A DNA stretch of 64,000 bases from positions 124,001-188,000 of the forward strand of contig JAEUWH010000113.1 in assembly GCA_016785955.1 (NCBI GenBank), given 5' to 3'. Source of the DNA: Pseudobdellovibrionaceae bacterium (GTDB taxonomy: Bacteria > Bdellovibrionota > Bdellovibrionia > Bdellovibrionales > Bdellovibrionaceae). Shown in pieces: positions 50,366 to 55,493 of the stretch (within the stretch, counting starts at the first letter, position 1; every line of letters starts with the position of its first letter). The position numbers and the translations under genes are program-made. The notes under the pieces were generated by a model. The model saw only the letters and a program-made list of their open reading frames with translations, was not told where the DNA came from and did not search any database.

Positions 50366-52525
50366 ATGAAAAAGGCCACTTGGAAATCTGGGATTTGTTT
50401 TTTTATCATCAATGCATTGCTTTCATGTACGTCTAAAGACAATCCCACCAGACTCAGCGAACCCAGTTTTTTGCCTCCCGACGAGCATGAAATCGCCACG
50501 CTAAAAGGCGTTTCCTCTTGGGAAACGTTAAACACCGAAAAAAATCAAAATAAAAAGTGGTGGCTGCAATTGCATTGGTCCCAAATGTATCTGCAAGATC
50601 AAAATCAAATCGCGACGGCTTGTCGTCTGCTCGAAGAACTCTATTTAGAAAAGAAGTTTCCTTTGCACCCATATGCCGGCCTTTTACTGAAGGCCCGTTG
50701 TCCGGACAAAGCGGCTATTGATATTTCACTTTCGGAAAAACAGAAAGTGATTTACAAAAAATGGACACGAGAAATTGAACTCGCCCAGGCCGTGCAAACT
50801 AATAATCAAGAAAATCGTTTTGTCTTATTGATGGAGCTGAACGCGGATGAAAAAGACCGCTTTTTAAGGAAAGAAACATACCTTAAACTTTTAAATGAAG
50901 CGAAACGACTGAAAAATGATAGTTTAGTTAACCTGGTATCCTCTGAACTGAAAAAAGAGTTTCCGCAATATCTGGAAGACCTACAAAAAAATTACTACGA
51001 AATCAGTTTAGATCTTATCAAAGATCGCTCGTTCCCGGACGCTCTTCGTCGCTTGAACACTCTTGTTCACGATAAAAGCGTCAGGGCCGAGCAAAAATTC
51101 AGATCATTTAAAACGATGTTCCGTATTTATAAAAGCACCCAAAACAAAACAGACCAGTGGTCTTTGATTGAACGGTGGGGAAAATGGATTAAAACTCAGA
51201 AAAAAGTCGCTGAATACGAATCTTGGCTGAATGAATGGGAAATCCTGAAAGCACGTTGGTTGTGGACCGAATCGCAAACCAGTAAAGCCATCGAAATCTT
51301 GGCGTCCTACGAAAATCGAAAAATCCGTAACTCTTTAAAAGAAGAGGCCTCTTACACATTGGGCCGTATATATGACGAAAAAAAAGACTATGAAAAAGCC
51401 AAACGTCTGTATCAAAACAGTCATGACCAGTCCCCTCTTAAAAAAGAAGCCTTAATCAAAGCCAAGAACTCTCTGTATGAGAAAAATCTTTGGAGCTTGG
51501 CATGGCTAGAATATAAAAATAAAAAATATGAAGACTCTCGGAAATGGCTACAAGAAATAGTCGACAAACTAGGGGGCGAATCCGACTCGAAATATCTGTA
51601 CTGGCTGGCCCAATCCTATCGGCAGTTGGGGCAAGACGATCTCTTTAAAACCACACTGATCAATTTACGAAAGAAAGAACCGCTGTCATTTTACACCTTG
51701 CTTTCTTATCGTGACTTGCGCGAGCCCATTCCTCTTTTAAAAAAATCGTCCCTGACCAACAAACGAGAGTTCCTGGTTGAAAACTTGAAAAACAATCTTG
51801 CAGAACTTGAAATCGCGGAAATATTGTGGCTTATCAGTCTAGAACAAAATGAAATTTTACAAAATTGGGCCAAGGTTTTAGAAAAAGAAGCTTTGGATAA
51901 CTACTTGCCGATTCTGCTGCTGTATTCACAGTCGGGGCAATACCAAAACCTGCTGAACTCTATCCAGGCCCTTAGCAGCGAACAAAAAAATACAATCACA
52001 TATCAGTTTCCAGAATTACTTTTTCCGAAACCTTATTTTGATGAGGTTCAGAAAAACAGTCAGCTGCAGTCCGTCCCTATGAGTTTTGTCTATTCGATTA
52101 TGCGCCAAGAATCAGCCTTTAATCCCTATGCCCGAAGTTCTGTGGATGCGTTGGGCTTGTTGCAGCTGATGCCCAATTTAGCAAAAAAACTGGCCGCAGG
52201 GGAATCCATTAACTATCGTAATGAATTCGATTTGTTTGATCCCGCAATTAACATCGCGTTGGGTACAAAAGAGCTAAAGAATTTACTGACTCACTACCAA
52301 AACCGATTCATCCCCGCCATTTCTGGCTATAATGCCTCATCGGCCGCCTATAAAGGTTGGATTCAAGTGCGTGGGCGCGACAACGTCGTCGAATTCATAG
52401 AGGAGATTCCTTACGAGGAAACACGGACCTACATCAAACTGATCCTGCGCAATATGCTTTTCTACGAACGTATTTACTTTCAAAATCAACCCTTTGAATT
52501 CCCTGCCCAATGGTTGGAAAAATAA
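50366..52525 (+). CDS. slt: Soluble lytic murein transglycosylase
   Basis: 719 residues with a signal peptide whose CFFIINALLSC could be a lipobox, so the enzyme may be a lipoprotein. A long alpha-helical superhelix (TPR-like, about 60-550) precedes the SLT catalytic domain, with Glu582 in MRQESAFNPYARSS, then GLLQLMP and a late SGYNASSAAYKGW. It cleaves peptidoglycan to 1,6-anhydro muropeptides. No ribosome-binding site is clear; CATAAT lies 6 bases before the ATG. Confidence 0.93.
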   Translation: MKKATWKSGICFFIINALLSCTSKDNPTRLSEPSFLPPDEHEIATLKGVSSWETLNTEKNQNKKWWLQLHWSQMYLQDQNQIATACRLLEELYLEKKFPLHPYAGLLLKARCPDKAAIDISLSEKQKVIYKKWTREIELAQAVQTNNQENRFVLLMELNADEKDRFLRKETYLKLLNEAKRLKNDSLVNLVSSELKKEFPQYLEDLQKNYYEISLDLIKDRSFPDALRRLNTLVHDKSVRAEQKFRSFKTMFRIYKSTQNKTDQWSLIERWGKWIKTQKKVAEYESWLNEWEILKARWLWTESQTSKAIEILASYENRKIRNSLKEEASYTLGRIYDEKKDYEKAKRLYQNSHDQSPLKKEALIKAKNSLYEKNLWSLAWLEYKNKKYEDSRKWLQEIVDKLGGESDSKYLYWLAQSYRQLGQDDLFKTTLINLRKKEPLSFYTLLSYRDLREPIPLLKKSSLTNKREFLVENLKNNLAELEIAEILWLISLEQNEILQNWAKVLEKEALDNYLPILLLYSQSGQYQNLLNSIQALSSEQKNTITYQFPELLFPKPYFDEVQKNSQLQSVPMSFVYSIMRQESAFNPYARSSVDALGLLQLMPNLAKKLAAGESINYRNEFDLFDPAINIALGTKELKNLLTHYQNRFIPAISGYNASSAAYKGWIQVRGRDNVVEFIEEIPYEETRTYIKLILRNMLFYERIYFQNQPFEFPAQWLEK

Positions 52526-52703
52526 TTGACCTTCTGAAAAAAGAGGCAGCGACGGCTTGGCCACTTTTTTAATTGGCCATAAAAGAAACTGTTTTTTGGG
52601 AAAGGCGAATCGTCTTGCTCATAGCGTAAACATTCTGCAGCGCTGTGTTTTTATTTGAAAAATTTAAGCTCCCCCTACATGGTCAATCGTTAGAGGGGAA
52701 ATT

Positions 52704-53507
52704 ATGGGCTACTTTTTTATACTTTTATGTTTGGTCATTAATGGGTGGGGACAGCAGCTGTACTTACCAAGAACAATAAGTCATCACCTTCATTCCGCAC
52801 AGCGGGGCCCCAACGAATCTGCAAATGCTGCATTTCAACGTTATCTTTCTCGGCTATCCTCGACAGGTGTTCGCCGAATCAACAATGACACACCTGTTGC
52901 GATCGCTAGGCCTTACAGTCAGCTGGCCTACCAAGGCATTCCGGTTTATCAAAGTCCCATTATGACACAAAAAGCATTCATGAGTATACGTGATGTACGA
53001 TATCTTAAAGACTCTAACCACAATATGATAAGACGCTCGAGTTGGTTATTTCCCGACGATGGCTGTTTTGCCCGTGCGGCCTTAATGGTACAAAAATTAA
53101 GTCAATGGAACCTTTTGCCACCAGCAAAAGTTTTTATTTTTGGCAACCTCTCGGTCAAAACGAAAAATTCCCCTTATGGATCTGTCGACTGGTGGTATCA
53201 TGTTGTACCAATAATCATTGTGGGAAACCAACCTATCGTGTTTGATCCAGCCATCGAACCCGGTCAACCCATGTTATTAAAAGATTGGATCCTGGCTATG
53301 ACTCCAGAAATTAACTCGGTAAAATTAGCGATCTGCCATCCCTCTAGTTACACTCCCGACAGCCCCTGCCGTGTAGACTCGAATTCAAGTGAACCCGCGA
53401 TGGATGACCAATTATTTTTCTTAAATATGGAATGGAATCGGCTAGTTGAAATGAACCGCAATCCTGTCCGTGAACTTGGCGATTTTCCGCCATGGTTAGG
53501 TCATTGA
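52704..53507 (+). CDS. Secreted protein-glutaminase-like deamidase
   Basis: 267 residues with a signal peptide (FFILLCLVINGWGQ). The core matches the protein-glutaminase fold: LFPDDGCFARAALM gives the nucleophile Cys (C121), SVDWWYHVVPI the His (H166) and IVFDPAIEPGQP the Asp (D181), with about 50 residues before the Cys free to act as propeptide. Such enzymes deamidate Gln side chains in proteins. An excreted form in this organism could act on prey or host proteins. GAGGGG lies just before the ATG. Confidence 0.82.
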   Translation: MGYFFILLCLVINGWGQQLYLPRTISHHLHSAQRGPNESANAAFQRYLSRLSSTGVRRINNDTPVAIARPYSQLAYQGIPVYQSPIMTQKAFMSIRDVRYLKDSNHNMIRRSSWLFPDDGCFARAALMVQKLSQWNLLPPAKVFIFGNLSVKTKNSPYGSVDWWYHVVPIIIVGNQPIVFDPAIEPGQPMLLKDWILAMTPEINSVKLAICHPSSYTPDSPCRVDSNSSEPAMDDQLFFLNMEWNRLVEMNRNPVRELGDFPPWLGH

Positions 53508-53557: not shown

Positions 53558-53584
53558 AAACCGGAGGCAGAACACCTCCGGTTT
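53558..53584. terminator. Perfect 10-bp inverted repeat between convergent genes
   Basis: AAACCGGAGG (53558-53567) pairs with CCTCCGGTTT (53575-53584) around a 7-base loop. It lies between the convergent glutaminase and subtilase-PilZ genes. The stem is stable, but no long T tract follows on either side, so termination is likely but not certain. Confidence 0.55.
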
Positions 53585-53627: not shown

Positions 53628-55493
53628 TCAATTATCGCTTTTCACCAACTGATTGGTCCAAGACTCTATGGTTTGCGAAATACCTTGTTTCGCCTCCGAA
53701 AATTTAACACCATACGATTGATTTGCTTCTGACCATACGACACGACCTTCAACTTCGACTTCGGCACCATCTGGTCCCTTGATTTTCATGGTTAGCGAAC
53801 CACCCTTCTCTAGCATTTCATCGACATTAAAGCTAATACCACCCATCGAGATTGTATTCATATGCGCGACTAACTCGCGACCACCAATATTGACCTTGAT
53901 ATCTGATTTCATCACAAACCGATCGTGTTTACGTCGAGACGCCGGCCTGCTTGCACGCATGTAAAAATAATAGGCCAATGGCAAAGACAAAATAAGTGCT
54001 AACGACACCGCATTTGCTGGCGTCATTCCACCGCCGCCTCCCCCACGACCAAATTGATTCATCAATGCCGTACTCACCAATCCACAACCACCGCTGGATT
54101 TGGGTGCCGCCTGTGCTTCAGATGCAGGCTCGCGCGTTTCGGCATATAAAGGTTTGTAATCTGGTTGAGATGCAGCCGTTTGCACATTCGATTTCGCCTG
54201 CGATACTAACGAATACGCATCAACGCGTGAACCCGATTGAATTTTGCCAGATAAAGGCCCAACCTGCACAGACGTTGAGATAATTAATTTTTTTAATTGA
54301 TAACCAGTCAAAGACGGCGCTTCCCTTAATGCTAAGGCCGCAATACCAGAAACAAACGGGGCCGCCATTGATGTGCCAGACATCGAGCCAAACATATTCC
54401 CTGGCAGTGAAGAATAGATATACACCCCAGGACTCGAGATATGAACCATTTGAACACCAAAGTTAGAGAACGAAGCTAAACGGTCAGTATCGCTTGAGGC
54501 GGCAATACTGATATTACTTGGAACAATATAGTTCGCCGGATACATTTCATTAGAATCATTGTTTTTTGCGCTATTACCGGCCGCTGATACAATCAGAACT
54601 TGTTGATTGTAGGCATAGGAAAGTGCTTCAAGCAATGCACTGGAATAACCAGGACCACCCCACGAATTGTTGATAATTTTAGCCCCATTATTAACGGCAT
54701 AGTAAATAGCCTTCACCGCATTTGATGTCGAGCCCGCCCCATGGGCATCTAAAAACTTTAATGGCATAATTTGAATTTTTGATTGATCCAATTGCGGCGA
54801 AAAAATATCTAATCCCGCACCAATCACAATTCCAGCCACATGAGTCCCATGGCCTTCGTCATCAGCAAAATTTGCAGAATTGCTGATAAAGTTCCAACCA
54901 TTGATATCGTCAATATATCCATTCTGATCGTCATCAATACCATTGCCTGGAATTTCTTTTTGATTTATCCACAGAGCGTTTGTTCTTCTGAAAAGGTCAT
55001 GCTGACCATCCATACCTGTATCCAGAATCGCCACAATCGGACGCTTATTCACGGCGTAGGGCGATGAAACCGACCACGCCTGCTCGACACGAACTGCGGC
55101 ATAGTTTTGCGAAAACGACAACGATGATTGCATTTGGACTTCACTCATCGAAAGCCGATCCACAACTTCTCCGGGACGCTCTTCATCTAATTTTTCTAAA
55201 ATATAATTTGGTTCAACAAATAAAACTTCAGGATCATTTTTAATATCGTTGATCGCCGACTCCTGCCCCGGCTTAACCGAAAAATGAAGCATATTCATTT
55301 CGGGAAATGCTGCTTTTAGATTCACCTTACTTTGGATTTTACTAATGACCTGAGACGATCCTATATCGACGCGATACTTAATAAGATATTCTCCAGGAAC
55401 AACCTTAGGCGTTTGCGACCATGCGGACAACGAAAGCAAAAGCCCGCCTAACAAACAAATGAACCAATGTACTGACCTCGCAATTACAATCAC
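53628..55493 (-). CDS. Subtilisin-like (S8) protease fused through a membrane segment to a PilZ domain
   Basis: 621 residues. Signal peptide (1-26), I9-type propeptide (about 33-100), then the S8 domain with D158 (AILDTGMD), H215 (GHGTHVAG), N307 (AAGNS) and S375 (SGTSMAAP). A Gly-rich linker (about 483-489) leads to a transmembrane helix (about 495-512) and a PilZ domain (516-605). PilZ motifs are R521-K-H-D-R525 (RxxxR) and TISMGG, where Thr replaces the usual Asp/Asn. The protease would be periplasmic and the PilZ part cytoplasmic, linking c-di-GMP or PilZ partners to a periplasmic enzyme. Confidence 0.9.
   Translation of the reverse strand: MIVIARSVHWFICLLGGLLLSLSAWSQTPKVVPGEYLIKYRVDIGSSQVISKIQSKVNLKAAFPEMNMLHFSVKPGQESAINDIKNDPEVLFVEPNYILEKLDEERPGEVVDRLSMSEVQMQSSLSFSQNYAAVRVEQAWSVSSPYAVNKRPIVAILDTGMDGQHDLFRRTNALWINQKEIPGNGIDDDQNGYIDDINGWNFISNSANFADDEGHGTHVAGIVIGAGLDIFSPQLDQSKIQIMPLKFLDAHGAGSTSNAVKAIYYAVNNGAKIINNSWGGPGYSSALLEALSYAYNQQVLIVSAAGNSAKNNDSNEMYPANYIVPSNISIAASSDTDRLASFSNFGVQMVHISSPGVYIYSSLPGNMFGSMSGTSMAAPFVSGIAALALREAPSLTGYQLKKLIISTSVQVGPLSGKIQSGSRVDAYSLVSQAKSNVQTAASQPDYKPLYAETREPASEAQAAPKSSGGCGLVSTALMNQFGRGGGGGGMTPANAVSLALILSLPLAYYFYMRASRPASRRKHDRFVMKSDIKVNIGGRELVAHMNTISMGGISFNVDEMLEKGGSLTMKIKGPDGAEVEVEGRVVWSEANQSYGVKFSEAKQGISQTIESWTNQLVKSDN

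What the first reader, a model, noticed from the sequence alone, without database searches (positions are those of the whole stretch)
52704..53507. Secreted protein-glutaminase-like enzyme
C121, H166 and D181 lie in contexts matching protein glutaminases, with a signal peptide and a possible propeptide. Side-chain deamidation is a known effector activity in other bacteria. In a predatory-type bacterium it could modify prey proteins or peptidoglycan-associated targets.
Basis: partly seen in the sequence, partly recalled or inferred. Interest (0 to 1): 0.5.

Follow-up and report, generated by a model that had tools for sequence, protein, structure and literature searches.

The report
Exported protein-deamidating enzyme, no pro-domain
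The gene encodes an exported enzyme of the protein-glutaminase family, which probably changes glutamine to glutamate in other proteins; it belongs to a family branch that lacks the built-in safety domain of the known enzymes.

Summary
The 267-aa ORF at 52704-53507 matches Pfam PF18626 Gln_deamidase_2 (E 1.7e-26). Its model (mean pLDDT 91.6) matches the protein-glutaminase fold (best VIA Z 16.1; next fold, NTAQ1, 6.5). C121, H166 and D181 align with C42, H83 and D103 of Chryseobacterium protein-glutaminase and are invariant in 62 of 62 branch members. Best reading: an exported cysteine deamidase acting on protein-bound glutamine; activity and substrate are untested. (1) The N-terminal 'propeptide' is not the known pro-domain: it is helical, and a pro-domain profile finds none in it. 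Its conserved residues suggest it stays in the mature enzyme. (2) Nothing shows a prey or peptidoglycan target: the gene stands alone, Bdellovibrio relatives sit among housekeeping genes, and Legionella species carry the same branch. An unplanned result: in sister branches the missing pro-domain is a separate gene directly downstream (17 of 29 loci, against 0 of 68 in this branch), resembling the solved pro-domain in fold and sequence.

The parts
52704..53507 (+). CDS of a 267-aa exported protein-glutaminase-fold enzyme (PF18626), window-type branch
52692..52698 (+). AGAGGGG, ribosome-binding-site-like, 5 nt before the ATG
   Evidence: read from the sequence
52704..52751 (+). probable Sec signal peptide (about residues 1-16; exact cleavage not determined)
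   Evidence: hydrophobicity; helix 3-15; relatives with clearer signal peptides
52770..52970 (+). N-terminal segment, residues about 23-89: helical, S31 and R34 conserved; no match to the protein-glutaminase pro-domain
52971..53297 (+). Gln_deamidase_2 domain, residues 90-198
53064..53066 (+). C121, catalytic cysteine (aligns with C42 of 2zk9)
   Evidence: 62 of 62 rows
53199..53201 (+). H166, catalytic histidine (aligns with H83 of 2zk9)
   Evidence: 62 of 62 rows
53244..53246 (+). D181, catalytic aspartate (aligns with D103 of 2zk9)
   Evidence: 62 of 62 rows
53334..53336 (+). C211, possible disulfide partner of C222
   Evidence: 60 of 62 rows hold C; the bond itself is inference
53367..53369 (+). 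C222, possible disulfide partner of C211
   Evidence: 61 of 62 rows hold C; the bond itself is inference
53472..53495 (+). C-terminal signature ELGDFPPW (residues 257-264) that marks the branch
53559..53583 (.). perfect 9-bp inverted repeat AACCGGAGG-7-CCTCCGGTT between this gene and the convergent one; possible terminator without a T run
   Evidence: read from the sequence; not flagged by the consensus scan

Best explanation
The gene makes an exported cysteine amidohydrolase of the protein-glutaminase fold. C121 would attack the side-chain amide of protein-bound glutamine, helped by H166 and D181; ammonia leaves, a thioester forms, and water releases glutamate. Shown here: family, fold, triad register, invariance of the triad. 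Inferred: export, the reaction, the substrate. The enzyme lacks the N-terminal OB-barrel pro-domain of characterised protein-glutaminases. Its short helical N-terminal segment and its ELGDxPPW tail are conserved and modelled with high confidence, so they are probably permanent parts of the mature enzyme. It therefore probably needs no pro-domain removal. Its likely job is general deamidation of periplasmic or extracellular protein (nutrition, or making proteins easier to digest) rather than a single-target effector role.
For: PF18626 E 1.7e-26. PDB sequence hits to protein-glutaminases. Fold: 8z3i Z 16.1 (189 aligned, rmsd 4.0), 3a54 15.3, 3a56 15.2, 2zk9 14.9 (156, 3.4), 2ksv 14.1 (154, 2.8); next NTAQ1 6.5 (129, 4.2). 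Triad 62 of 62. Two rows have lipobox-like N-ends (L058, L095), in line with an envelope location. No fused pro-domain in any PF18626 ORF examined, and a pro-domain gene downstream in 0 of 68 window-type loci with at least 300 nt downstream. Model: helices at 26-29, 40-53, 64-67; ten-residue pLDDT means of 81-98 from residue 31 on, mostly 94 or more. Full-length orthologue in 20 of 22 genomes of genus g6, which holds Bdellovibrio sp. UBA4095.
Against: No activity data. NCBIfam's protein-glutamine glutaminase equivalog is far below its cut-off (34.5 against 250 bits), so substrate and even reaction may differ. Identity to solved enzymes is about 20%. The fold is shared with amidases of other kinds (NTAQ1) and, weakly, with LapG, arylamine N-acetyltransferases and transglutaminase (Z 3.7-6.5). 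VIA also aligned the model from residue 17 or 28 with pro-forms, so some pro-region overlap in space is not excluded. The gene is patchy in its own genus: intact in 2 of 6 genomes, in two broken pieces in 1, not found in 3.
Confidence: 0.72

Rival explanations
1. It is a secreted effector that deamidates one particular prey or host protein.
For: Present in 20 of 22 genomes of the Bdellovibrio genus and in Legionella species, that is, in lineages that live off other cells. In 8 Legionella-type loci an M64 peptidase gene lies directly downstream. PMC10318531 (passage read) places PF18626 near Dot/Icm genes.
Against: A plain Sec-type N-end, no injection signal seen, housekeeping neighbours in Bdellovibrio. 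The Legionella loci here show purine genes, M64 peptidase and alpha-2-macroglobulin and no Dot/Icm gene among the proteins scanned. Also present in uncultured Oligoflexia and other bins whose way of life is unknown.
Confidence: 0.12
2. The protein uses the same fold and triad for another acyl-transfer reaction: transglutaminase-like cross-linking, a peptidase, or an amidase on a small peptide.
For: NTAQ1, transglutaminase 3, LapG and arylamine N-acetyltransferases appear in the structure list; the equivalog cut-off is not reached.
Against: All five protein-glutaminase entries stand 7 or more Z units above every other fold, and the motifs DGCxARA, WxYH and DP[AS] are shared with them.
Confidence: 0.12
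3. It is a zymogen after all: the helical N-terminal segment is a different kind of propeptide, cut off by a protease such as the subtilase encoded next door.
For: VIA aligned residues from 17 or 28 on with pro-forms. Exported subtilase-PilZ gene adjacent at 53628-55493. Bacillus proteases activate Chryseobacterium protein-glutaminase (PMC12791059, passages read).
Against: S31 is invariant in the 21-row alignment and R34 is kept in 57 of 62 rows, not far after the predicted cleavage site; pLDDT means of 96 there. The subtilase is convergent, not co-directional, and is kept in genomes without this enzyme.
Confidence: 0.2

Closest known systems
Protein-glutaminase of Chryseobacterium proteolyticum (EC 3.5.1.44; PDB 2zk9, 2ksv, 3a54, 3a56)
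   Same: Catalytic fold (Z 14.1-15.3); Cys-His-Asp in register; exported
   Different: That enzyme has an N-terminal pro-sequence of 114 aa and a mature part of 185 aa (PMC9396377, passages). Here there is no such pro-domain; instead a helical N-terminal segment, a C211/C222 pair and an ELGDxPPW tail
Protein glutaminase FBPG of Flavobacterium sp. 316 (PDB 8z3i)
   Same: Best fold and sequence match (Z 16.1; phmmer E 4.9e-10)
   Different: 18% identity over 189 aligned residues; longer chain of 312 residues
Other PF18626 branches of Bdellovibrionota (L104-L113, L116-L119, L122, L124 and others)
   Same: Same Pfam domain and Cys-His-Asp motifs
   Different: They lack the ELGDxPPW tail and are often followed by a separate pro-domain-like gene (17 of 29)
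Human NTAQ1, N-terminal glutamine amidohydrolase
   Same: Next-nearest solved fold (Z 6.5), also a Gln amidohydrolase
   Different: Acts on N-terminal Gln (recalled and from the abstract listed); far weaker match

Membership tests
Pfam PF18626 Gln_deamidase_2 | Profile score above the curated cut-off | tested here: met
   92.9 bits against 25, positions 3-105 of 106
Pfam PF18626 Gln_deamidase_2 | Cys-His-Asp triad in register with solved members | tested here: met
   C121/H166/D181 align with C42/H83/D103 of 2zk9; 62 of 62 rows
Pfam PF18626 Gln_deamidase_2 | Protein-glutaminase fold | tested here: met
   Foldseek ranks 1-6 and VIA ranks 1-5 are protein-glutaminases
Pfam PF18626 Gln_deamidase_2 | The three residues close in space | tested here: inconclusive
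Characterised protein-glutaminase (NCBIfam NF040782, EC 3.5.1.44) | Equivalog score above cut-off | tested here: not met
   34.5 bits against 250
Characterised protein-glutaminase (NCBIfam NF040782, EC 3.5.1.44) | N-terminal pro-domain of about 110 residues with an OB-like barrel | tested here: not met
   Segment of about 65 residues, helical in the model; no match of the pro-domain profile A3 in any PF18626 ORF examined
Characterised protein-glutaminase (NCBIfam NF040782, EC 3.5.1.44) | Deamidation of protein-bound glutamine | not testable with these tools
   Needs an enzyme assay
Injected or host-directed deamidase effector | Delivery signal or linked secretion system | tested here: inconclusive
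   No such gene among the neighbours scanned; only neighbours within the loci were looked at, and no predictor of delivery signals was available

The most novel reading that the evidence does not exclude
In Bdellovibrionota the inhibitory pro-domain of protein-glutaminases has come loose from the enzyme. In sister branches it is a small secreted protein of its own, encoded directly downstream, which keeps the active-site loop (its HAG/HAA motif falls on Ala47 of the solved pro-domain) and would act as a trans inhibitor or folding partner. In the branch of the window gene it has been dropped altogether, so this enzyme is exported without a covering domain and is either active at once or held by another, unlinked protein.
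Probability: 0.45. Interest if true: 0.6.

Novelty: new variant of a known kind. Interest (0 to 1): 0.42.

Why it matters
Protein-glutaminases are known from a few Bacteroidota enzymes used in food processing, where pro-sequence removal is a production step (PMC12791059, passages). A large natural branch that seems to do without the pro-domain, next to branches that carry it as a separate gene, would show how this safety device evolves and could supply enzymes that need no activation step. For predatory bacteria it adds a widely kept exported deamidase, in 20 of 22 genomes of the Bdellovibrio genus, for which the searches found no report.

Tried and rejected
Operon context: no conserved neighbour across the branch. 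The widest neighbour clusters reached 9 of 78 loci, and Bdellovibrio neighbours are LolA, UPF0004/radical-SAM, Obg, RsfS/cytidylyltransferase, SPOUT methyltransferase and L21 families. A Dot/Icm neighbourhood, stated for PF18626 in PMC10318531, was not seen in the Legionella loci held here; 9 named genomes were searched for PF18626, 8 of them Legionella, and each Legionella holds only this gene (in G258 as two pieces).

Recent transfer into the window: base composition is ordinary (44.2% G+C against 41.8%); no match on plasmids or phages; no viral fold match with E at or below 0.001. Transfer between Bdellovibrionota and Legionella is possible (12 Legionella rows group together inside a mostly Bdellovibrionota tree) but deep branches are weak.

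The unlinked pro-domain-like proteins as partners of this enzyme: no co-occurrence in genus g6. By my reading, G137 and G148 have an unlinked copy without the enzyme, and G141, G143, G033, G145 and G150 have the enzyme without any copy. Rejected for now. A first sequence attempt with the 9-row profile A2 found no pro-domain in the PDB; the 25-row profile A3 did.

Promoter and terminator scans gave nothing clearly above chance for this gene. The search for related loci with the single sequence found no relative; with the alignment, 73 loci.

Rows dropped: A1 took 21 full-length rows out of the matches; cut, broken and distant ones were left out. From one search's 73 loci plus the window and four G-genome loci, the glutaminase cluster of 82 ORFs gave 73 tree rows after removing rows without WW[YF]H, cut pieces and two duplicates; 62 of these, without 11 rows of the other branch, were used for conservation. 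In one search, loci from L125 on were left out because the partner search itself had fetched them. L122 counts as having a partner (E 2.5e-13; the script overwrote it with a weaker neighbour, E 0.14). Of the 17 partner sequences, 12 were also rows of A3.

Full report
What is there. The window holds one clear gene at 52704-53507 (+), 267 codons, with a ribosome-binding-like AGAGGGG just before its ATG. It stands alone. The upstream gene is a lytic transglycosylase on the same strand (50366-52525, 178 nt away), and the downstream gene is a convergent subtilase-PilZ gene (53628-55493).

Family. Pfam PF18626 Gln_deamidase_2 matches residues 90-198 at E 1.7e-26, well over its cut-off. The only PDB sequences with E below 0.01 are protein-glutaminases. 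The NCBIfam model for protein-glutamine glutaminase reaches only 34.5 of the 250 bits asked. So the protein is in the family but is not the characterised enzyme.

Fold. A 21-sequence alignment A1 gave a model with mean pLDDT 91.6. Foldseek ranks 1-6 are protein-glutaminases. VIA gives Z 16.1 (8z3i), 15.3, 15.2, 14.9 and 14.1 for them and 6.5 for the next fold, NTAQ1.

Catalytic residues. C121, H166 and D181 align with C42, H83 and D103 of 2zk9 (residue numbers counted from the printed alignments). That these three are the protein-glutaminase triad is recalled; PMC9396377 (passages) states that the predicted active-site residues are Cys, His and Asp. All three are invariant in 21 of 21 and 62 of 62 rows. 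Distances could not be measured.

Branch. The window protein belongs to a branch marked by R34, RR110-111, WW163-164, the C211/C222 pair and an ELGDxPPW tail. In 59 relatives, 29 have some match at E 0.001 or better. In 241 genomes of the phylum, 136 match the A1 profile, many of them only distant paralogues. In genus g6, which contains Bdellovibrio sp. UBA4095 (its 1326452-bp contig, L061, has the same length as G033:C14), 20 of 22 genomes hold a full-length copy. The branch also occurs in a series of Legionella species; in the tree these group together inside mostly Bdellovibrionota rows, with weak deep support.

No pro-domain. Chryseobacterium protein-glutaminases carry a pro-sequence of 114-118 residues before a 185-residue mature part (PMC9396377, passages). 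The window protein has about 65 residues between signal peptide and domain. The model makes them helical with high confidence, whereas the solved pro-domain is of the OB type (inferred from the match lists). S31 is invariant in A1, R34 is kept in 57 of 62 rows; S31 did not reach 85% in the wider set. I take this segment to be part of the mature enzyme; that is inference.

The detached pro-domain. While checking neighbours I found that in a sister branch (L104-L113) a small secreted protein of 95-119 residues lies directly downstream, overlapping the stop codon or within 29 nt of it. Pfam has no match for it. Its model (pLDDT 79.9 overall, 93-95 over residues 41-100) has as Foldseek ranks 1-3 the pro-form of protein-glutaminase (E 1.9e-3 to 3.4e-3). 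VIA gives 3a54 Z 11.2, 72 aligned, rmsd 1.8, chain residues 20-91, against 9.5 for the best ordinary OB fold. The margin is under 2 Z units, so the fold alone would not settle it. A 25-row profile A3 of these proteins then found pro-protein-glutaminase as its first and second hits by sequence (E 0.0022 and 0.0083, chain 31-90), and no other chain below 0.05. In that alignment Ala47, the residue changed to Gln in 3a54, falls on the A of the conserved HAG/HAA loop. The title of the structure paper describes the pro-forms as converted into an enzyme-substrate complex (reference entry seen; the paper itself is not held), so this loop is probably the one that sits at the active site.

How general it is. 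Leaving out loci fetched by the partner search itself, 17 of 29 PF18626 genes of other branches with at least 300 nt downstream have such a gene directly downstream; window-type genes have it in 0 of 68; none has it fused. 12 of the 17 were also rows of A3, so for those the count is partly by construction; L026, L027, L028, L113 and L122 were not. Unlinked copies occur in many Bdellovibrio genomes, beside unrelated genes where I looked, and a weak one in the window's own genome (C62:26311-26568, E 5.8e-8). Presence of unlinked copies does not follow presence of the window-type enzyme, so I do not call them its partner.

Function. The best reading is a general exported protein-glutamine deamidase (0.72). 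Single-target effector action is possible (0.12) but nothing points to it: neighbours in Bdellovibrio are housekeeping genes. In Legionella an M64 peptidase gene lies directly downstream in 8 loci and an alpha-2-macroglobulin gene nearby in 8, which fits dealing with extracellular protein. PMC10318531 (passage) mentions Dot/Icm genes near PF18626 members; I did not see that in the loci held. Peptidoglycan as a target is unlikely on general grounds: Gram-negative wall peptides usually carry D-Glu without amidation (recalled).

Novelty. The enzyme class is known; the branch without pro-domain and the split pro-domain in sister branches were in no paper found (PubMed Central open-licence papers only, search listings; passages read from PMC10318531, PMC11297309, PMC12791059, PMC9396377 and PMC10707025). 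Propeptide-like inhibitors encoded beside a protease are known elsewhere (Spi and streptopain, recalled; and the passage did not bear it out). Hence 'new variant of a known kind'.

Noticed in passing
L104:8483-8842, L105:8438-8758, L107:8525-8845, L108:8438-8758, L109:8464-8757, L110:8441-8767, L111:8467-8799, L112:6564-6851, L113:8439-8726; also L116, L117, L118, L122, L124: A small secreted protein directly downstream of PF18626 genes of other branches, matching the pro-domain of protein-glutaminase in fold (Z 11.2) and sequence (E 0.0022), with a HAG/HAA loop at the Ala47 position: a candidate trans-acting pro-domain.
   Followed up: yes
G000:C62:26311-26568 (L155:1501-1788): The window's own genome has a weak unlinked relative of that small protein (E 5.8e-8), right after an ORF with a transglutaminase-like GDCKDY motif (my reading, no profile run).
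   Followed up: partly
53628-55493 (-): Exported subtilase whose C-terminal end carries a PilZ domain after a hydrophobic stretch, so possibly a protease whose cytoplasmic tail senses c-di-GMP; all 39 relatives searched have a match, mostly over the full length.
   Followed up: partly
L120:577-2556 (G000:C123): A 659-aa exported protein in the window's genome with a weak PF18626 match at residues 500-571 (18.3 bits, below cut-off) and C, H and D in plausible places.
   Followed up: partly
L116:369-2078, L117:523-2148, L118:2037-3896, L122:1847-3616: Long PF18626 proteins (541-619 aa) whose large N-terminal region reaches no Pfam cut-off in the two scanned (L116, L118), also followed by the pro-domain-like gene.
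   Followed up: partly
L054, L059, L065, L067, L079, L090, L100, L101: In Legionella-type loci the window-type gene is followed by an M64 peptidase gene, often with a bacterial alpha-2-macroglobulin gene nearby.
   Followed up: partly
L035:4503-5284 (G001) and L100:7971-8755: Broken copies of the window-type gene, each in two pieces, in a same-genus genome and in Legionella norrlandica; assembly error not excluded.
   Followed up: no
L096, L097, L098: Gammaproteobacterial window-type enzymes with an extra N-terminal region of over 200 residues; in L096, the only one scanned, it has no Pfam match.
   Followed up: no
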